DNA of 23,089 nucleotides from a virus. The stretch lies in IMG/VR virus record IMGVR_UViG_3300046538_000027, positions 1 through 23,089 of that record. The stretch is one strand, 5' to 3'. Positions 1,188 to 14,980 of this stretch are shown here, one piece after another. Under the pieces are notes generated by a model. It was not told the DNA's origin. It worked only from the letters and a program-made list of their open reading frames with translations, and did no database searches. Numbering within the stretch: position 1 is the first letter of the stretch; each line of letters begins with the position of its first letter. The position numbers and the translations under genes were made by a program.

Positions 1188-1955
1188 ATGGGGAGCTTCA
1201 TCGACTGGTTCAGCCGGTCCTACAAGGGCGTCATCATCGGGCTCGTCGCGTTCGGGGCGGTGATGATGGTTGTACTGGCGCTACAGCACGTGAACGCGTC
1301 GCGACCGGCTGAAGGCGCTGTCGCTGGTCCAGTGCCGACGTTCAGCAGTACGGCCACGTTCCCGACCGTCTCAGTCAAGCGCGACGGTGACAATTCGCTA
1401 CACGTCCTGTTCGCAGGCGACTCGCTTACCGGCGGCTTGTACGCGTCCACCCAGGAAAACGCCTTCAAGTGGCGGATGCTCGCCAGCATGCAGCAAAGCG
1501 GCTCCGTCGACGAGAGCAACAGCGCACTGTCCGGCGGGACAACACTGCAGGTGTCCGAGAAGTACCCGGTCCCGTCAGGCTTGGACCTCGCTGTCGTCGA
1601 GCTCGGAACCAACGACCAGGGCAATCAGGTCCCCATGGACACGTTTACGGACTCCTACAGCGCGCTTCTCGACAAAATCAGGGCAAGCTCTGACCACGTC
1701 AAGATCGTCTGCGCTGGCGTCTGGGAAGCGAACGGTGGCAGCGCCACCGAGTCTGACTACGACGTCAAGATCCGATCGCTCTGCAGTCAGGCAGGCGGGG
1801 TGTTCGTCTCGCTCCGACAAATCTACACGAAGCCCGACGTCATCGGCCCTGTAGGAGCGAAGGCGTGGCTTGGCACCGCCGATGACTTCCACCCGAACGA
1901 CAAGGGGCATCAGCTCATCGCTGATGCCCTCCTGCAGCGCATCGTCATTCAGTAG
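1188..1955 (+). CDS. Membrane-anchored SGNH/GDSL-family hydrolase
   Basis: This 255-aa protein has a short basic N-terminus, one transmembrane segment (about residues 14-33, positive-inside, so the catalytic part should face outward), a Ser/Thr/Pro-rich linker (38-60) and an SGNH hydrolase domain. Block I is FAGDSLTGG with nucleophile Ser79. Gly116-Gly117 can supply the oxyanion glycine. Block III is ELGTND (Asn142). Block V is DDFHPND with Asp232 and His235. The family removes acyl or acetyl groups from lipids, glycans or peptidoglycan; the substrate here is unknown. It lies opposite to the late operon, ends convergently with an 11-nt overlap against the 37-aa gene, and has its own promoter candidate. 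A role in altering the host envelope (release, adsorption or exclusion of other phages) is inference. No catalytic residue appears to be missing. Confidence 0.85.
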   Translation: MGSFIDWFSRSYKGVIIGLVAFGAVMMVVLALQHVNASRPAEGAVAGPVPTFSSTATFPTVSVKRDGDNSLHVLFAGDSLTGGLYASTQENAFKWRMLASMQQSGSVDESNSALSGGTTLQVSEKYPVPSGLDLAVVELGTNDQGNQVPMDTFTDSYSALLDKIRASSDHVKIVCAGVWEANGGSATESDYDVKIRSLCSQAGGVFVSLRQIYTKPDVIGPVGAKAWLGTADDFHPNDKGHQLIADALLQRIVIQ

Positions 1956-3009: not shown

Positions 3010-3702
3010 TCACGCGGCTGGAACACACGTCGACTGGACGCGTCCGAGCTCAACACCTGACTGGTCGTAGAACACGACGTAAGAACTGAGACCATCGACG
3101 AGGCACTGAACAGACGCGACAGAACGACCGTCCTGCCCAGGCTTCCCGTCAACGCCGTTCTTGCCGTCCGCGCCAGGTGGCCCCGCTGGTCCGGCAGGAC
3201 CGGCAGGACCGGCAGCGCCAGCGGGGCCGGCTGGACCGGGGACCGTCGAATCAGCCCCCGGCGCACCGTTCAGCCCATCCGCGCCAGCACTGCCAGCCGG
3301 GCCGGGGACGGACGAATCTGCCCCCGCCTTGCCAGCAGCGCCCGGCTCGCCGTCTTTGCCATCACGGCCCGGCTCGCCATCACGGCCAGCCGGTCCCGTC
3401 TGCCCACGAACGCCCGGCAGACCGATCGGTCCGCGTTCGCCGGCAGCCCCGGCCACACCAGGGATCGGCGGGGCGTCACTCTTAATCTGGTCGGGCGTCT
3501 TCGTGTTCGGCTTCACACCGTTGTCGATCAGCTGCCGTTGCGCCTGAGTGAGCGCATCCGACAGTGTGTAGTTCTGCTTCCGCTGCACGTCGATGATCTG
3601 CGTCTTGTGCAAGTCGTCGTACACGCCAAACCCGATCGCCAACGCGATCATCACCGCCAAGCAGCCGAACATGATCCGGGTGCCACGAGTCCACTCGCTC
3701 AT
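3010..3702 (-). CDS. Membrane-anchored collagen-like repeat protein
   Basis: A 230-aa protein with three parts. The N-terminus is a short basic segment and one transmembrane helix (about residues 10-28). A polar, probably helical region follows (29-80). A Gly-X-Y collagen-like stalk spans about 82-192, interrupted twice by the near-identical ADSSVPG and ADSTVPG (128-134, 150-156). The C-terminal cap of about 38 residues has two cysteines (Cys200, Cys226) and beta-like sequence. Positive-inside orientation places the stalk outside the membrane. Collagen-like stalks are common in phage fibres, but a membrane anchor suggests the protein stays in the host envelope. It overlaps the preceding coiled-coil gene by ATGA and follows the holin, so a lysis-stage envelope role is plausible. 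No function can be assigned. The DNA is locally repetitive (GGCAGGACC units on the plus strand near 3200). Confidence 0.8.
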   Translation of the reverse strand: MSEWTRGTRIMFGCLAVMIALAIGFGVYDDLHKTQIIDVQRKQNYTLSDALTQAQRQLIDNGVKPNTKTPDQIKSDAPPIPGVAGAAGERGPIGLPGVRGQTGPAGRDGEPGRDGKDGEPGAAGKAGADSSVPGPAGSAGADGLNGAPGADSTVPGPAGPAGAAGPAGPAGPAGPPGADGKNGVDGKPGQDGRSVASVQCLVDGLSSYVVFYDQSGVELGRVQSTCVPAA

Positions 3703-5821: not shown

Positions 5822-6973
5822 TCAGAGATGGACGCCATCTACGACAATCGACGTGCCCGCGGAGATCGCGATACCTGCCGTGTAGACGAACAGGGTGCAC
5901 GTCGTCGCGGTCTGCCCCGTGATGCGTGCACTCACGCTCGTCAGCACGCCACCCGGTGGGGTGACAGACACGATCGTGGGCGTGTAGTTCGCGTCGGCAA
6001 ACGCTGTCGGCCAGGTGATCGTGACCGTGGTTGACGAGTTGAGAACCGTCAGCGCGCCCATCGTTGCCGAGGTGACGCGCTGCCGGAGCTTCGTCTTTGC
6101 GGCATCCTCGAGCGCCTTGACGCGAGCCGCTAGCGCAGTGACGTCGGTCGCGATCGCGTACGAAGACTGCTTGCCCTCGAGCGTCGTCACACGCCCCGTC
6201 AGAGCGGTCACATCAGTACCGGACGCATACCCGGACTGTCGGCCTTCCAGCGTCGTCACACGGCCAGCCAGGGCCGTTGCCACAGTCTCGTCAGTGGTGA
6301 CGCGAGTGGCGAGGTCCGTCACGCTGGTCTGCGCCGCGGTGATCGCCTTCGTCGCATCCGACGACGACTTCTCAACCGCCGTGAGACGAGCAAGGGACTG
6401 CGTGCGCGACTGAACATAAGCACTGTGCAGACCGGCCACCAGCGTCTCCACGCGGACACCCTGGATTCGTCCGTCCTTGGAGTACACGACGAACTCGTGC
6501 AGCCCGGCAGCGTCCAGGTCTTCAGCAATCCAACCGACCGAGACGCGGTTCGTCGGGTCGCCTGCATACGTGAACGTGCGCAGGTGCTGGTTCAGCCATG
6601 CGGACATGTCCACCGTGTAGTCGCCGGTGACGATCTTCATCTCCTGCGACGAGGGGATGTAGCCGAACGAACCGTTAGCGTCGACCGCAAGTGCGATCGG
6701 GTTGTTCGTCAGCGGGTTGTTGCGTGCACCAGTAGAGGACACGCCTGCCGGGAACACCCCCTGCGAGCCGACAATAGGCCCGGACATCGTGGCCGACGTG
6801 CCCGTGAACGTACCGCCCAGGAACATGTCCGCCTGCACCGATGACGTGTTGATCGCAGCCGACGAAAGCTTCTTGATCGCGTTCGACAGGGCACGAAGTC
6901 GGATGCGGAAGGTGCGCTCCAACTCAGCAACACGGCGCGGGGTCTCGAGCTCGTTCGGCAGCTTCACGTTCAC
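5822..6973 (-). CDS. Tail fibre with internal S74-like intramolecular chaperone region
   Basis: A 383-aa protein. The N-terminus (1-45) is helical and probably attaches to the tail. Residues about 45-105 are a Gly/Thr/Ser-rich beta region. Residues about 104-200 resemble the peptidase S74 chaperone of phage fibres: SSQEMK (108-113), VGWIAEDLDAAGLHEFVVY, then a V-E-T-L helix start. In known members a serine at the start of this domain is the self-cleavage site; Ser108 or Ser109 is the candidate here. Next come 23-residue coiled-coil repeats (LTGRVTTLEGKQ, about 235-290) and a C-terminal beta domain (300-383) that looks like a knob. S74 domains usually sit at the C-terminus, so an internal copy followed by a knob is notable. 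It overlaps the Gp37-like gene by ATGA. Confidence 0.7.
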   Translation of the reverse strand: MNVKLPNELETPRRVAELERTFRIRLRALSNAIKKLSSAAINTSSVQADMFLGGTFTGTSATMSGPIVGSQGVFPAGVSSTGARNNPLTNNPIALAVDANGSFGYIPSSQEMKIVTGDYTVDMSAWLNQHLRTFTYAGDPTNRVSVGWIAEDLDAAGLHEFVVYSKDGRIQGVRVETLVAGLHSAYVQSRTQSLARLTAVEKSSSDATKAITAAQTSVTDLATRVTTDETVATALAGRVTTLEGRQSGYASGTDVTALTGRVTTLEGKQSSYAIATDVTALAARVKALEDAAKTKLRQRVTSATMGALTVLNSSTTVTITWPTAFADANYTPTIVSVTPPGGVLTSVSARITGQTATTCTLFVYTAGIAISAGTSIVVDGVHL

Positions 6974-9093: not shown

Positions 9094-10122
9094 CTACCTC
9101 CAAGAAGGGACCGCAGTGACGGTCATACGAGCTTGAGAATTGAACTGACGGGCCGTAAACGACCACGTGTTGTCGCCCGGACGCAGCGACGACCAACCAC
9201 GCTTCGTGATGTACCCGTCACGGCTTGCCTGCCCGTTCGCGAGGACCGTGTGCGCTTCCATGTCGATGAGTAGGAACTCACCAGCACGCAGCGTCATCGC
9301 GTCCGAGAACGCGACTGAGCGGCCCGTCTCCGAATGCGTGATGACAGGCCCGACACAGGGGCCGTCGATACGGACGATTACCGGACCAGAGGTATTGCCG
9401 GGGTTCTCGATCGGAACCTGCCCGGTCTGCACGGTTGCCCCGATCGTGAACGGCACCGTCAGCGCACCAGTCAGCGAAAGAGCGTTGACGTATGTTGCCG
9501 ATGCGGGTGTGCCATCCGAGTTGAACAGGTCGTACGTGCCGGGCGTCGACGACGGCTGGATCATCAGGCCAGCAGCGTTCGCTGATGCTGACACCTGATC
9601 GGCCGTGTACAAGCCATCCGTGGAACCAGCGTCCGAACCACCGATGACAAGCCCGCCCGACGTTGACGGCAATGCGGTGCTGCCCTGCAGGGAGTCACCG
9701 AACTTCCGCCAGTCCGTCGAATCAACCTGAATCGACCACGTACCGATCGTCGGCAGCAGCGTGTCGGTCAGGATCTCATCCGACTGCTGCACCGACACCC
9801 ACCGGTCACCAGCAGGAGTCGAAACCGTCAACCGCTGATCGACACCAACCGGGATCGCATCGTTCAGACGATCGAACGCATCCTGCAACGACCGCGCGTC
9901 CGGTGCGTACACCTTCCCGGAAGCGGCGATCGAACGGCCACTCGCGTAGCTGCTCGACCGCCACCCACCGGAACGCCGCGCCCGCTGCGTGATCGAAGAC
10001 GTCGGCTTTGTAGACCCGGACCATCCATCCAACTTCTCGACAGCCCAATCAACGCCGAACGAATCGACCTGACCAAACGGGATGCCACCCAACATGAACG
10101 ATGTCTGATCCGGTTCCAGCAT
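9094..10122 (-). CDS. Distal tail protein (Dit-like)
   Basis: A 342-aa protein that begins exactly at the tape measure stop (TGATG overlap). The first 140 residues match the siphophage distal tail pattern: GGIPFGQVDSFGVDWAVEKLDGW, a basic loop RARRSGGWRSSSY, ASGKVYAPDARSLQDAFDRLN, and later WSIQVDSTDWRKFG. The C-terminal part (about 240-342) is a beta domain with the LRPGDNTWSFTARQ motif common in Dit proteins that carry an extra carbohydrate-type fold. Dit forms the ring at the end of the tail tube that anchors the tip. Position next to the tape measure is the usual one. Confidence 0.75.
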   Translation of the reverse strand: MLEPDQTSFMLGGIPFGQVDSFGVDWAVEKLDGWSGSTKPTSSITQRARRSGGWRSSSYASGRSIAASGKVYAPDARSLQDAFDRLNDAIPVGVDQRLTVSTPAGDRWVSVQQSDEILTDTLLPTIGTWSIQVDSTDWRKFGDSLQGSTALPSTSGGLVIGGSDAGSTDGLYTADQVSASANAAGLMIQPSSTPGTYDLFNSDGTPASATYVNALSLTGALTVPFTIGATVQTGQVPIENPGNTSGPVIVRIDGPCVGPVITHSETGRSVAFSDAMTLRAGEFLLIDMEAHTVLANGQASRDGYITKRGWSSLRPGDNTWSFTARQFNSQARMTVTAVPSWR

Positions 10123-13100
10123 CAGGCGTAACTCGCTCTCTCCCGCCGCTCGATCGCCTGAGCGACCGCGGTGGGGTCTTGCACGGACAGGTTGTAGTTG
10201 TTGCCCGCACGGTTGATCACCTGCGCCGGCTGCTGAACTGACCGCATCGGCGTCGGGTCCATGTACCGGATGTCGCGTCCCGAGTTCATGGCCTCGAGCA
10301 GCGGCCGGTTCCGAGCGGTCGCGGCAGCCGTGGACACGAACTCGCGGCCGTGGACGACACCGGCGATCTCCCCGATGCCACCGTTGCCCGTGTACCCGCC
10401 GACCGAGAAGCCCTTAACCCCGAACGCTCGAGCGATGATCTTCTGGATCGCGCGGGACTGCTTCTCGATCTGCCGCTCCAACGACTTCGCGTTACGGTCA
10501 GCTGCAGCGATCTGCGTCTTGTAGTTCGCATCCGCCACCGTCTGCCCCGCCTTGCCAGCAGACGACTGAATCGACGAATACGAACCGTTGATCGACTTGA
10601 TCTGAGCAGCAGACGCCGACGCCAGAGACCGGGCAAGCGGCAAACCCTCAACAGACCCGAGCTCAGCGATCTCCGACAGCAACGCTGAAGACACGCCACG
10701 CTGCTGCAACTTCACCAGCAGCGCCGCGAACTCCTTCGCCTTACCCGCCGTACGAGCAAGCCCGGAACTCAGACCACCCGCAGACCGGTAGTTGCCGACA
10801 TCGAACTTCGACACCGCAGACGCCACCGAAGACCGCAGCGAATCAGCTGAGGACCGCAAATCCTTCAGCTTGCCCGCCGCCGAATCCGACTGGTCAGCGA
10901 GACGCCCCAACGACTTCTGGAAGATCAGCGCCGCACTACCCGCACTGTGACGGGCAGCCGGCGACAAGTCAGAATCGCCGTACAGCGAGAACAGAGCAGA
11001 CACACCCTGCTGACCCGAATAGCTGCCACTGGCACGGTTGTACGCAAAATCGATCAGACCGCCAGACGCGTACTTCCGGACATGCCCGCCGTTCGCGTAC
11101 CGGCCCGTGTTCACCCGGTCCAGGAACGTCGTCCCGTACTTCCGCACCGACGACGCCTTGATGACGTACTCATTGTCAGACAGGTACGCCGGAATCGAAT
11201 CAGACGTTTCAGTACCAGGGCCACGAACATGACCACCACCGGCCTTGAAGATGCCGACCGTGTTGTCCGGCGTACCAACAGTCACACGATTCGTGGTAAT
11301 CGTGATCGACTTGCTGTTGAGGTTCGCCAGCGTGTTGATCATGCCTTGAATCGCGGTCTGGGCGGCAAGGACGTTTGCCGTCACCACCGTGCGCTTCTCA
11401 GCGGGAAGCGCATTTAGCTTTTGCTGATAATCTGAAATCTTGCCGCCAGCCGAATCGGCGTTGTTGAAGATTTCTGTTGCCCATCGCGTAGGGGTACCCA
11501 GGATCTTGTTCGCGTAATCCTGCGCAGCCTGACCCGTCACACCGTACTGCCCAAGAGCAGCGATCAGGGAATCGCGGCCAGAATTCAGTGCGCTCGTCGC
11601 CTGACCCTGCGACCCCGTCTGCTGATACAGAGCACCCGCGTAGTTCAACGTGGACTGCGCGATCGAATCAAGAGTCGCCGCGTTCTGCCTGCCCTTGTCC
11701 GTCGTCACGTCGAGGGACTGACCATTCTCCTTGACGGAGTCCGTCACCGCATCGATAGCCGACTCGAAATCACGCTGCGCGGAGTTCACATCGAGCTGGG
11801 CCGAATTGAAGCCCTTGATCGCGTTCGACGTGTCCGTGATCGCCTGGGTAGCATCCTCAGCAGAATCAGTGATTGAGTCTAGGCCGGAAGCAGCATCCTC
11901 AGCCGTGTCCTTACCCTCGGACTGCGCTTCGTTCAGCTGCTCCTGCTGGCCCTTAGCGTTCTCGACCGCACCGCGCTGCTTCTCAACCGCCTGCACAAGC
12001 TCGGTGATGTCGCCGGAAGCACCAGACAGGCCCTCGCCGTACTTCTTGCTGATGTAGTCGTTGTCGTCGCTGCCGCGGATGTCACGCTGAATCGCGAGCA
12101 GTTCCTTGTACGCCTTCGTGTTGCCCTGAGCGGCCTTCGTCACCGTGTCAAGGCCGATGCCGAGACGCTTTGCCTTGTCGAATGCCGACGATCCACCGAT
12201 TTCCGCACCGAAGATCGTCGTACGGGCGGCAAGTGCGTTTGACACGAGCTCGGTTGTGTTCTTCGTCAGGGCACCGGTGGTGTCGTCGAGCGAGTCACGG
12301 AGCGTCTGCGTGTACTGCGCCGACTGCAGCTGCTGAGCAGCGAAGATCGCAGCCGCAGCAGCGGCAACACTCAGGGCGATGCCCCATGGCCCAGTCAGGA
12401 ACTTGACGACCCCATTCAGAGAGGAACGCGCAGTGACGCCGCCCTCACCGAGCGTTGCGACAGCAGCGCGGAACTCGACGATCTTGGGAATCGCGACGAG
12501 CAGTCCGCCGGCCAGCAGCGATGCCCCGCCAACCACCGCGGTCAGCGCGAGCGCGGAACCCTTCACCGGCTCAGGCAGGGCGTTGAACGCAGCGACCACG
12601 CTCGTCATCGTCTGCACGAGAGGACGGAGCGCACCGTCAGCGGCAGACCCCGTCTCGATCAGGCCGGACTGGAACGCGGACTTGAGCTTCTTCAGGTCAC
12701 CGTTGAGGTTGTCCGACTTGATGGCAGCCTGCTCCATGGCATAGCCGGCATCGTTGTTCTGGTCGATGTAGCCCTGGATGCCATCCGCGCCCTCCTTGTA
12801 GAGGACAGTCGCCGCGCGCACCGCGTCAGACCCGAAAATCTGGGACAGGGCCTGCTGACGCTGAGCGTTTGAGAGGTCACCGAGCTTGTCGTGCAGCAGC
12901 TGCGCGAGATCCGCAGCACCCAGGAAGTTGCCGTTCGCATCCTTCACGTTCAAGCCAAGCTGCTTCATCAGACCAGCCGACTGCTTCGACGGGTTCGCCA
13001 GCGCCTGCAGCATCGACTTCAGGGAAGTACCAGCGTCCGAACCGAGCAGACCAGCATCCGCGAAGGACGACAGCACCCCAGTCGTTTCCTCGAGCGACAG

Positions 13101-13715
13101 GCCGAAGTTAGACGCGACCAGACCAGACTGGTTCAGCGCGTCACCAAGCTGCTCCACGCCACCGAGCGCCTTACCCGCCCCGGCCGCGAGCTCATCCGCG
13201 ATGTGCGGGACATCCTTACCCGACAGGCCGAACTGCTTCATCGCGACAGCAGCGATCTGCGTCGCCTTACCCAGCTCCACGTTGTCCGACGCGGCAAGAG
13301 CCAGAACACCGTCGAGGCCACCCCCGAGGATGTCCTTCGTCGCCAAGCCCGCCTTACCGAGCTCAACCTGCGCCTCAGTAACCTGCGTCGCCGTGTACCC
13401 GAACGCGGCACCCGCAGTCAGCGCCTGCTCACGGAACTTCGACATCTCGCCAGCAGTGGCCGACGTCGCCGCCTGCACCTTCGACATCTGCGCATCGAAA
13501 TCCGCAGCCATCTTGATGACGACCGCAGCAGCGCCCGTCGCAACAGCGCCCACTCCAAGCAGCGCGGTCCCGACAGAAGTAGAAGCCTGGCCGAGCTTCT
13601 CGAGCTTTTCGGACTGATTCGCCGCGTCAGCCGTCGCCTTGCGAACCTTCTCCATGCCGGAGACGTAATTCGCAATAGAAGCCTGGATAGTGACCTTTAC
13701 AACACGGTCCGCCAA
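10122..13715 (-). CDS. Tape measure protein
   Basis: The TTG at 13715 is chosen because a near-complete anti-SD match, GGAGGTGAT, lies just upstream and the resulting N-terminus, (M)ADRVVKVTIQASIANYVSGM, looks like other phage tape measure proteins. The frame extends to GTG 13730 without a ribosome site. The 1197-aa product has a TP901-type core (about 65-340, QMSKVQAATSATAGEMSKFREQA onward), a helical region with two hydrophobic stretches (about 395-480), a long Ala/Gln-rich coil, and a C-terminus with Gly-rich GGHVRGPGTETSDSIPAYLS and related motifs. At about 0.15 nm per residue, a tail of roughly 180 nm is expected (inference). The protein sets tail length and is ejected with the DNA. It is the longest gene in the window. 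Confidence 0.9.
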   Translation of the reverse strand: MADRVVKVTIQASIANYVSGMEKVRKATADAANQSEKLEKLGQASTSVGTALLGVGAVATGAAAVVIKMAADFDAQMSKVQAATSATAGEMSKFREQALTAGAAFGYTATQVTEAQVELGKAGLATKDILGGGLDGVLALAASDNVELGKATQIAAVAMKQFGLSGKDVPHIADELAAGAGKALGGVEQLGDALNQSGLVASNFGLSLEETTGVLSSFADAGLLGSDAGTSLKSMLQALANPSKQSAGLMKQLGLNVKDANGNFLGAADLAQLLHDKLGDLSNAQRQQALSQIFGSDAVRAATVLYKEGADGIQGYIDQNNDAGYAMEQAAIKSDNLNGDLKKLKSAFQSGLIETGSAADGALRPLVQTMTSVVAAFNALPEPVKGSALALTAVVGGASLLAGGLLVAIPKIVEFRAAVATLGEGGVTARSSLNGVVKFLTGPWGIALSVAAAAAAIFAAQQLQSAQYTQTLRDSLDDTTGALTKNTTELVSNALAARTTIFGAEIGGSSAFDKAKRLGIGLDTVTKAAQGNTKAYKELLAIQRDIRGSDDNDYISKKYGEGLSGASGDITELVQAVEKQRGAVENAKGQQEQLNEAQSEGKDTAEDAASGLDSITDSAEDATQAITDTSNAIKGFNSAQLDVNSAQRDFESAIDAVTDSVKENGQSLDVTTDKGRQNAATLDSIAQSTLNYAGALYQQTGSQGQATSALNSGRDSLIAALGQYGVTGQAAQDYANKILGTPTRWATEIFNNADSAGGKISDYQQKLNALPAEKRTVVTANVLAAQTAIQGMINTLANLNSKSITITTNRVTVGTPDNTVGIFKAGGGHVRGPGTETSDSIPAYLSDNEYVIKASSVRKYGTTFLDRVNTGRYANGGHVRKYASGGLIDFAYNRASGSYSGQQGVSALFSLYGDSDLSPAARHSAGSAALIFQKSLGRLADQSDSAAGKLKDLRSSADSLRSSVASAVSKFDVGNYRSAGGLSSGLARTAGKAKEFAALLVKLQQRGVSSALLSEIAELGSVEGLPLARSLASASAAQIKSINGSYSSIQSSAGKAGQTVADANYKTQIAAADRNAKSLERQIEKQSRAIQKIIARAFGVKGFSVGGYTGNGGIGEIAGVVHGREFVSTAAATARNRPLLEAMNSGRDIRYMDPTPMRSVQQPAQVINRAGNNYNLSVQDPTAVAQAIERRERASYA

Positions 13716-13760
13716 GCGGATCACCTCCACATTGGGGCCGCGGAAACGGCAGAAAGGACG

Positions 13761-13766
13761 TACGAT
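13761..13766 (+). promoter_or_regulatory. -10-like box TACGAT for the antisense membrane gene
   Basis: TACGAT ends 6 nt before the ATG at 13773, so the predicted first transcribed base is the A of the start codon. A purine-rich stretch AGAAAGGACG lies upstream, but its spacing (about 15 nt) is too long for a good ribosome site. Leaderless expression is inferred; no -35 is evident. Confidence 0.4.
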
Positions 13767-13772
13767 CAGTCC

Positions 13773-13955
13773 ATGAGTGAGCAGAAGACGTCAGCGATGA
13801 GCGGCCTGGCAGCGACCTACCTGCTGGTGATCGGCATCGTCATGCTGGTGATTGGTGTGCTCGTGTGGGGCAGCGGCGGGATGCCGCTCATCCCGTTCAC
13901 GATCGGCGCGGTCCTGGTCATCGCGTGGCTGATCATCAAGGCCGCAAAGAGCTAG
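13773..13955 (+). CDS. 60-aa two-helix membrane protein, antisense in the tail module
   Basis: This rightward gene lies inside the leftward tail operon and exactly fills the 236-nt gap between the chaperone (stop 13952) and tape measure (start 13715) genes. The product begins MSEQKTSAMSGLAATYLLVI. It has two hydrophobic segments (about residues 13-32 and 37-55) joined by a short WGSGGMP turn, and a basic end (KAAKS). Its stop shares CTAG with the stop of the leftward G-T frame, so the genes are convergent and overlap by 3 nt. It has no recognised family. Small phage membrane proteins on their own promoter often affect superinfection or the host envelope; that is inference. Antisense ORFs are common in high-GC DNA, but this one has no gene opposite it over most of its length, which supports it. 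Confidence 0.75.
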   Translation: MSEQKTSAMSGLAATYLLVIGIVMLVIGVLVWGSGGMPLIPFTIGAVLVIAWLIIKAAKS

Positions 13956-14943
13956 CCCCGCTCGACCTTCTCGACCGGCCAGAAGATGCCCGCGTTATCC
14001 GCGGTGTCACCGCCGGCCTTGCGCCACGCTTCCTCCGCGTGCGCTTCCGCCTGCTTCGCGAAGTCACGCAGGGGGGCGCGGACGAACACGCCCTCCGGTG
14101 TCGTCGTCAGCACGCCCGCCTTGAACACGTACTTGTTGTCCCGGTTCGACGGGTCAGCGTCCGGGGATGTGGCCTCGTCCATCGGGAAGCCGTGGGGGCC
14201 GATCATCTTCTGGAACGCCTGCACACCGAGGACCAACGCCACCTGATCGGGTGACCACTGCGACTCGCGTTCAACCCGCGTGTACAGCAGCGCCCCCGAC
14301 TCGTCACGCACCGGCACATGCCGTTCCTCAGGTACCCAACCGCGCAGTACCTTCGGGGCGACACCGAGCTCAGTGGCTAGGAGGACTTCTTCTCGGAGGC
14401 GGCGGTTACGGCGCGCAGCGCTTTTCCCACCTCCACCGCCCGAGCAGTGTCACCCTCGTTGAGCGCGTAGATGGCGTCAGCGATACGTCGGTGATCGCCG
14501 CCAGAGATGAGCTCGAGCAGGGTGTCCCACTCGTCAGCCGTGAGCGCGCGGTCGGTGCCGTCCTCGACGAGCACGCCGCTCTCGATCGCAGCATGCCGGG
14601 TGACAGCGTTGAAGTCGTACTGGAAGTACAGGTCCGCGAGCACCTTGTCCCGAGGCGGGTTGTTCAACGTGATGTCCGACCATGACTCACCGATGAGCCG
14701 CGTGAACTTCAGGTCAACCAGCGTGTCCGCGAACTCCGCACGCACATCCTCAACCTGCTGCAGCAGATCCGTCAGCGGCGACTTCTTCGCCAGCCGACCA
14801 TCCTGCGGCTTCTGCTTCTCAGCCTCAACCTGATCTTCCAGGGAAGCGAGACGGTCAGACACCTCAGCATCCAGCGCCACTGTCACAACCTTCGACGGAC
14901 GGCCCCGCTCCTTCGCAGCAGCCAGCTTCTCGTTGAACCCCAT
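13952..14943 (-). CDS. Tail assembly chaperone G-T, made by -1 frameshift
   Basis: The downstream frame (stop 13952) has no start codon near its beginning and is in the -1 frame of the upstream gene G. Ribosomes slipping at GGGAAAA (14422-14428) would pass from G residue 174 into SAARRNRRLREEVLLATELG and continue to ...IFWPVEKVERG, giving about 330 residues. The new part (about 156 aa) has LLATELGVAPKVLRGW, which resembles the T-domain start of other phage G-T proteins. In the lambda paradigm, G and G-T coat the tape measure and recruit tail tube subunits at a fixed ratio. The position directly before the tape measure, apart from the antisense gene, is as expected. Confidence 0.8.
14377..14943 (-). 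CDS. Tail assembly chaperone G
   Basis: ATG 14943 is preferred over a GTG five codons earlier because GAGGAA lies 8 nt before it. The 188-aa product starts MGFNEKLAAAKERGRPSK. Its first part is basic, the next about 50 residues are helical and charged, and the rest is a small helical domain with ALTADEWDTLLELISGG. It ends in ALRAVTAASEKKSS when no frameshift occurs. It lies between the major tail protein and the G-T extension. The product is the abundant short chaperone form. The in-frame slippery heptamer near its end gives the longer form. Confidence 0.85.
   Translation of the reverse strand: MGFNEKLAAAKERGRPSKVVTVALDAEVSDRLASLEDQVEAEKQKPQDGRLAKKSPLTDLLQQVEDVRAEFADTLVDLKFTRLIGESWSDITLNNPPRDKVLADLYFQYDFNAVTRHAAIESGVLVEDGTDRALTADEWDTLLELISGGDHRRIADAIYALNEGDTARAVEVGKALRAVTAASEKKSS
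14422..14428 (-). other. Programmed -1 ribosomal frameshift site, G GGA AAA
   Basis: On the minus strand the coding frame reads GTG GGA AAA GCG, giving the canonical X XXY YYZ heptamer GGGAAAA in the correct phase. Slipping by -1 leads into the open downstream frame, which is open through the overlap. The heptamer is close to lambda's GGGAAAG at the same place in the gene order. Confidence 0.8.
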
Positions 14944-14980
14944 AAGCCTGTTCCTCACTCGATCTCACTCAGAAGGTGAA

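What the first reader, a model, noticed from the sequence alone, without database searches (positions are those of the whole stretch)
13716..13955. Antisense membrane-protein gene inserted between tape measure and tail chaperones
Tail chaperone and tape measure genes are normally adjacent and co-oriented. Here a 60-aa two-helix membrane protein gene on the opposite strand occupies the 236-nt gap, has its own -10 box, and shares CTAG with the G-T stop. It is a well-bounded candidate 'moron', with superinfection exclusion or host-envelope modification as the main hypotheses.
Basis: partly seen in the sequence, partly recalled or inferred. Interest (0 to 1): 0.8.

Follow-up and report, generated by a model that had tools for sequence, protein, structure and literature searches.

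The report
Antisense membrane gene in phage tail operon
A small gene for a two-helix membrane protein sits backwards between two tail-assembly genes of an actinobacterial phage; relatives and unrelated small membrane genes recur backwards in the same spot in many temperate phages of these bacteria, most with the same kind of minimal promoter, so it is probably a gene the dormant phage uses to protect its host from other phages.

Summary
The ORF (13773-13955, +, 60 aa) is real: six relatives (43-67% identity) occupy the same antisense position between the tail chaperone T ORF and the tape measure gene (TMP), dN/dS is 0.13-0.47, and AlphaFold2 gives a helical hairpin. A TANNNT -10 box (TACGAT) lies 6 nt before the ATG, implying a leaderless mRNA.

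The slot is recurrent. Unrelated antisense genes, mostly small membrane proteins (once a lipoprotein), lie there in Arthrobacter, Microbacterium and Gordonia phages and in Microbacteriaceae prophages, often with the same 4-nt stop-codon overlap. TANNNT at 5-8 nt precedes 13 of 19 antisense starts and 0 of 79 sense starts. The gene is swapped independently of the tail: two phages with 97%-identical TMP N-termini carry antisense proteins only 42% identical.

Best reading: a prophage-expressed moron, probably superinfection exclusion at DNA entry, analogous in position to HK97 gp15 (62 aa, same slot, but sense strand, no sequence similarity), opposed by late transcription as reported for phi80 taiEcA. 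Expression, function and target are inferred. GenBank records call some of these genes 'membrane protein'; I found no paper describing the slot.

The parts
13773..13955 (+). Antisense gene: 60-aa two-helix (hairpin) membrane protein
   Evidence: ORF and translation; homologues in the same slot; dN/dS 0.13-0.47; AlphaFold2 hairpin, pLDDT 80
13761..13766 (+). -10 element TACGAT, 6 nt before the ATG; predicted leaderless start of transcription at 13773
   Evidence: Conserved TANNNT at 6-8 nt in all seven family members; 13 of 19 antisense vs 0 of 79 sense starts
13952..13955 (.). CTAG shared by the stop codons of the antisense gene and the T ORF
   Evidence: Sequence; same 4-nt overlap in relatives and in many unrelated slot genes
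13952..14428 (-). T part of the G-T tail assembly chaperone, entered by -1 frameshift at G_GGA_AAA (14428-14422); ATG/GTG/TTG-started ORF is 13952-14317
14377..14958 (-). G tail assembly chaperone ORF
   Evidence: position and slip site
10122..13715 (-). Tape measure protein gene (likely start TTG 13715; longest ORF starts at 13730)
   Evidence: PHROG tape measure matches; Shine-Dalgarno at 13729-13722

Best explanation
The ORF is a genuine lysogeny-type moron: a short protein-coding gene with its own leaderless promoter, inserted antisense in the T-TMP gap of a temperate actinobacteriophage. In the prophage the late operon is silent, so the gene is expressed and makes a 60-aa helical hairpin in the cytoplasmic membrane with both charged ends inside. 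Most likely it excludes superinfecting siphophages at DNA entry, by acting on the membrane step that uses the tape measure protein. When the phage itself enters the lytic cycle, the late transcript runs through the gene in the opposite direction and switches it off. Shown by sequence: coding, predicted membrane topology, slot, -10 element, independent allele swapping. Inferred: expression in lysogens, silencing by late transcription, exclusion function, TMP-linked target.
For: Gene is real and under purifying selection. Own -10 element with leaderless spacing, conserved in the family and in unrelated slot genes, absent from 79 sense genes. Antisense slot recurs in temperate phages and in a prophage-bearing Curtobacterium contig, filled mostly by small membrane proteins and once by a lipoprotein. 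Allele exchange independent of TMP and G. L005 carries two Cro/C1-type HTH genes in the same orientation in the slot. HK97 gp15 exclusion moron (62 aa) is in the same slot and tail tube/tape measure swaps escape it (PMC10883804). Prophage gene opposed to the late operon and reduced by Q: phi80 taiEcA (PMC11364771).
Against: No expression or phenotype data. No sequence similarity to HK97 gp15 or to any model in PADLOC, Pfam, PHROGs or NCBIfam above cut-off. One slot occupant (L020) is not a membrane protein; some related modules have the gap without a recognisable antisense gene (Pitbull, L016, L018). The window itself holds no integrase or repressor, being only the structural half.
Confidence: 0.5

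Rival explanations
1. A lysogenic-conversion moron that is not anti-phage: it changes host envelope physiology (stress, transport, surface) to the benefit of the lysogen.
For: Same gene architecture, promoter and swapping would be expected; slot occupants are diverse envelope proteins without a common fold.
Against: The constant position next to the tape measure gene and the HK97 gp15 precedent favour a link to DNA entry; no domain suggesting physiology was found.
Confidence: 0.25
2. A prophage-expressed tail assembly blocker of the Tab/Tai kind: it binds the incoming phage's tape measure or chaperone late in infection rather than stopping DNA entry.
For: Tab is an 83-residue prophage moron product that targets TMP (PMC10884400); Tai is antisense to the late operon (PMC11364771).
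Against: A two-helix hairpin with almost no soluble part is poorly suited to act in cytoplasmic tail assembly; no similarity found to defence models.
Confidence: 0.1
3. A component of the phage's own lytic programme, such as a holin-like or assembly-membrane protein, that happens to be antisense.
For: Small two-helix proteins include some holins (own knowledge).
Against: It would have to be made while the convergent late operon is transcribed through it; identity does not track TMP or G; absent from some related tail modules.
Confidence: 0.08
4. An antisense regulatory RNA of the tail operon whose ORF is incidental.
For: Any transcript from this promoter that reads past the stop would be complementary to T and G mRNA; no terminator was found there.
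Against: Protein-level conservation with dN/dS of 0.13-0.47 and conserved AWLIIKAAK C-terminus.
Confidence: 0.05
5. A spurious ORF in a GC-rich gap.
For: Long chance ORFs are common here: 15% of shuffles hold one of at least 60 codons.
Against: Seven-member family, purifying selection, conserved -10, and zero of 5000 shuffles with two hydrophobic segments.
Confidence: 0.02

Closest known systems
HK97 gp15 (superinfection exclusion moron, Cumby et al. 2012)
   Same: 62-aa moron product encoded exactly between the G-T chaperone and the tape measure gene; reported as a predicted inner-membrane exclusion protein, escaped by tail tube/tape measure swap (PMC10883804)
   Different: Sense strand, with a terminator after it; no detectable sequence similarity; Gram-negative host; predicted single helix (own knowledge)
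phi80 TaiEcA and its 'noncontiguous operon'
   Same: Prophage-expressed gene transcribed against the late operon and reduced when late transcription is on (PMC11364771)
   Different: Lies upstream of the packaging module, blocks tail assembly, has an adjacent counter-defence gene; none of these shown here
JBD26 Tab (tail assembly blocker)
   Same: Small prophage moron product whose target is TMP (PMC10884400)
   Different: Elsewhere in the genome (between terminase genes in the paper's description), acts on assembly rather than at the membrane
Membrane exclusion proteins: P22 SieA, TP-J34 Ltp, Tuc2009 Sie2009, T4 Imm
   Same: Small membrane or membrane-anchored proteins that stop phage DNA entry (PMC10883804 for SieA, Ltp, Sie2009; Imm from own knowledge)
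   Different: Different genomic places; no sequence similarity detected through the family libraries searched
Slot genes annotated 'membrane protein' in Arthrobacter phage Persistence (gp17), TripleJ (gp17), Gordonia phage Morkie (gp15)
   Same: Same antisense slot; two-helix (Persistence, TripleJ) or one-helix (Morkie) proteins
   Different: Not found as homologues of the window protein by tblastn; function unknown too

Membership tests
Phage moron | Gene inserted between two genes that are adjacent in related phages | tested here: met
   T and TMP adjacent without it in Phishy, AbbyDaisy, Bbif-1; present in the window family
Phage moron | Own promoter | tested here: met
   Conserved TANNNT at leaderless spacing; by sequence only
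Phage moron | Own terminator | tested here: not met
   No intrinsic terminator found by a simple scan at 13500-14200; the gene ends inside the T stop codon. A typical but not universal moron feature
Phage moron | Expressed from the prophage, independent of phage growth genes | not testable with these tools
   Needs RNA-seq of a lysogen
HK97 gp15 / YebO-like family | Sequence similarity to gp15 | tested here: not met
   No BLASTP alignment at E <= 100
HK97 gp15 / YebO-like family | Same genomic slot and size | tested here: met
   62 aa between T and TMP in NC_002167, though on the sense strand
Superinfection exclusion proteins (functional class) | Blocks infection by other phages when expressed | not testable with these tools
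   Plating test needed
Superinfection exclusion proteins (functional class) | Membrane or surface location | tested here: met
   Two hydrophobic helices in all seven members; AF2 hairpin; prediction only
Known defence systems (PADLOC) | Match to a PADLOC model | tested here: not met
   No match at E <= 0.1
Pfam DUF3784 (PF12650) | Score above gathering cut-off | tested here: not met
   19.1 bits vs cut-off 28.1

The most novel reading that the evidence does not exclude
Temperate actinobacteriophages share a dedicated antisense 'exclusion slot' between tail chaperone and tape measure: a leaderless, lysogeny-expressed cassette of interchangeable small membrane proteins or lipoproteins whose alleles decide which siphophages may inject, silenced automatically when the phage's own late operon is transcribed through it.
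Probability: 0.35. Interest if true: 0.75.

Novelty: new variant of a known kind. Interest (0 to 1): 0.55.

Why it matters
If right, a simple positional rule (antisense small ORF between T and TMP, TANNNT 6-7 nt before the ATG) would let one collect a large set of candidate exclusion genes from temperate actinobacteriophages. It would also give a compact case of self-silencing by convergent late transcription, and the allele swaps next to nearly identical tape measures (L003/L004) could map exclusion specificity.

Tried and rejected
Homology search of INPHARED phages with the window protein: none. Pfam, PHROGs, NCBIfam, PADLOC: nothing above cut-off. Generic sigma-70 promoter and terminator scan: nothing. 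Search of 400 Microbacteriaceae genomes with the family profile: 10 weak hits, mostly inside long open frames, not followed up; one true member among 67 Curtobacterium genomes (the second hit there is weak). A first automatic slot census with a synonymous-codon score was unusable because T genes scored too low; the later ones still misplace T in some loci, so I give no fraction of occupied slots. Pairwise DNA identities of 1% printed are alignment failures caused by free end gaps and are not used. Holin and antisense-RNA readings were considered and judged unlikely. No fold search was run: a 60-residue two-helix hairpin would match too many structures to be informative.

Full report
OBSERVATION. 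The window is a complete 23,089-base virus record carrying the structural half of a siphophage on the - strand: portal, capsid, head-tail connectors, major tail protein, G, T, tape measure, Dit-like and further tail genes. Between T and TMP a 60-codon ORF runs on the + strand at 13773-13955. Its stop codon shares CTAG with the T stop. G carries a canonical G_GGA_AAA slip site (14428-14422) in the right phase to enter the T frame, so the flanking gene is a true G-T chaperone. TMP is best started at TTG 13715 behind GGAGGTGA, which reproduces the 236-nt gap in the finding.

IT IS A GENE. Scans of IMG/VR gave relatives at 43-67% identity in five other phage contigs (L002, L003, L004, L005, L006/L007/L015) and a further one in a 270-kb contig of Curtobacterium sp. 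ISL-83 (L034). All lie antisense between T and TMP and end with the same 4-nt overlap. Conserved features are a hydrophilic N-terminus, two hydrophobic helices joined by a G-rich loop, and (except in L034) the C-terminus AWLIIKA(A/S)K. dN/dS by Nei-Gojobori is 0.13-0.47 (dS is near saturation for the most distant pairs). AlphaFold2 on the seven-member alignment gives a two-helix hairpin, mean pLDDT 80. Positive charges sit at the ends and none in the loop, so N-in/C-in is expected (inference). Chance ORFs of this length are not rare in the gap (15% of shuffles), but none of 5000 shuffles had two hydrophobic segments.

PROMOTER. Upstream of the ATG lies TACGAT with a 6-nt spacer. TANNNT is the common -10 motif of M. 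tuberculosis, where about a quarter of genes with a primary start site are transcribed from the start codon itself (PMC3898074). Members of the family have TACGAT or TACACT at 6-8 nt and L034 has TAGGGT at 7. Unrelated slot genes of Judy, Phrank15, Isolde, Morkie, Footloose and TripleJ also have the motif. The tally is 13 of 19 antisense starts against 0 of 79 sense gene starts from the same loci (Fisher p = 5e-12). Caveats: rows are related, so the p-value is not a true probability, and for L034 and Isolde I chose the ATG myself. Persistence, Anekin and Hestia instead have TATGAT about 26 nt before the start, followed by a G-rich ribosome-binding-like stretch; Richie is similar.

THE SLOT IS RECURRENT. 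Using the TMP N-terminus as bait I collected related tail modules from virus contigs and Microbacteriaceae genomes. Several hold different antisense ORFs in the T-TMP gap: a second two-helix protein (L061), a one-helix protein (L065), a multi-helix ORF with poor coding score (L071), a lipoprotein with a lipobox (L076), a one-helix protein with a soluble domain (L024) and a small soluble one (L020). Annotated phages show the same: Arthrobacter phages Persistence, Anekin, Hestia, Judy, Phrank15, Faja, TripleJ, Richie and EvePickles, Microbacterium phage Footloose, and Gordonia phages Lucky10 and Morkie have an antisense gene there, named 'membrane protein' or 'hypothetical protein'; Isolde has an unannotated one. 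Judy's version is found in 17 records, Persistence's and Faja's in few. Phishy, AbbyDaisy and Bifidobacterium phage Bbif-1 have a gap of 10-20 bases and no gene; Pitbull and S. aureus phi12 have a gap but no annotated gene. Persistence and Judy carry integrases and regulator genes, i.e. look temperate.

IT MOVES INDEPENDENTLY OF THE TAIL. L003 and L004 have TMP N-termini 97% and G proteins 92% identical, but antisense proteins only 42% identical; conversely the window and L002 have TMP N-termini 51% identical but antisense proteins 57% identical. A structural or assembly partner of TMP would hardly behave so; an exchanged exclusion or conversion gene would. In L005, four further ORFs in the same orientation, two encoding Cro/C1-type HTH proteins, lie between TMP and the membrane gene, consistent with the slot being a place for genes expressed in the lysogen.

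MECHANISM. HK97 gp15, a 62-aa moron product, lies in exactly this slot, though on the sense strand; [quoted passage not shown] SNIPE, another membrane defence, works through tape measure proteins during injection (PMC13190303). The arrangement against the late operon is paralleled by phi80 taiEcA, which acts in the lysogen and is reduced when Q drives the late operon (PMC11364771). I therefore propose prophage-expressed exclusion at DNA entry with silencing by late transcription. Coding, slot, promoter motif and swapping are shown by sequence. Expression, silencing, function and target are inferred.

KNOWN OR NEW. Individual genes of this kind are in GenBank as membrane or hypothetical proteins. 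The papers I could search (text checks in 83, 88) do not describe the slot, but subscription journals are mostly missing and Cumby et al. 2012 itself was not held. The protein family matched no Pfam, PHROGs, NCBIfam or PADLOC model above cut-off. I rate it a new variant of a known kind: a moron analogous in position to HK97 gp15, but antisense and leaderless, in a recurrent slot.

Noticed in passing
window 1188-1955 (+): A GDSL-lipase gene (Pfam Lipase_GDSL_2, 5.5e-21) on the + strand, opposite to the tail genes, beyond a collagen-repeat tail protein (3010-3702, -). Judy also has a reverse-oriented lipase and membrane protein after its tail fibre gene: possibly a second antisense moron position.
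   Followed up: partly
L005:3819-4924: Four ORFs, two of them Cro/C1-type HTH regulators, inserted in the slot between TMP and the membrane gene in the same antisense orientation.
   Followed up: partly
L076:1049-1489 (coordinates with TMP on +): Antisense lipoprotein gene directly upstream of TMP in a Microbacteriaceae prophage; lipoproteins are a known exclusion class (Ltp).
   Followed up: no
L024:3605-4081 (-): A different antisense one-helix protein in the T-TMP gap of a related tail module, weakly matching PHROGs 13160 and 2320 of unknown function.
   Followed up: no
L104 (Lucky10 gp15) and L093:1612-1791 (Isolde): Lucky10 gp15 is annotated from a TTG upstream of the leaderless ATG used by Morkie gp15; Isolde's slot gene is not annotated at all.
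   Followed up: partly
L006 about 6190-6210: The T ORF of this contig is broken by an apparent frameshift, either a sequencing error or a real lesion.
   Followed up: no
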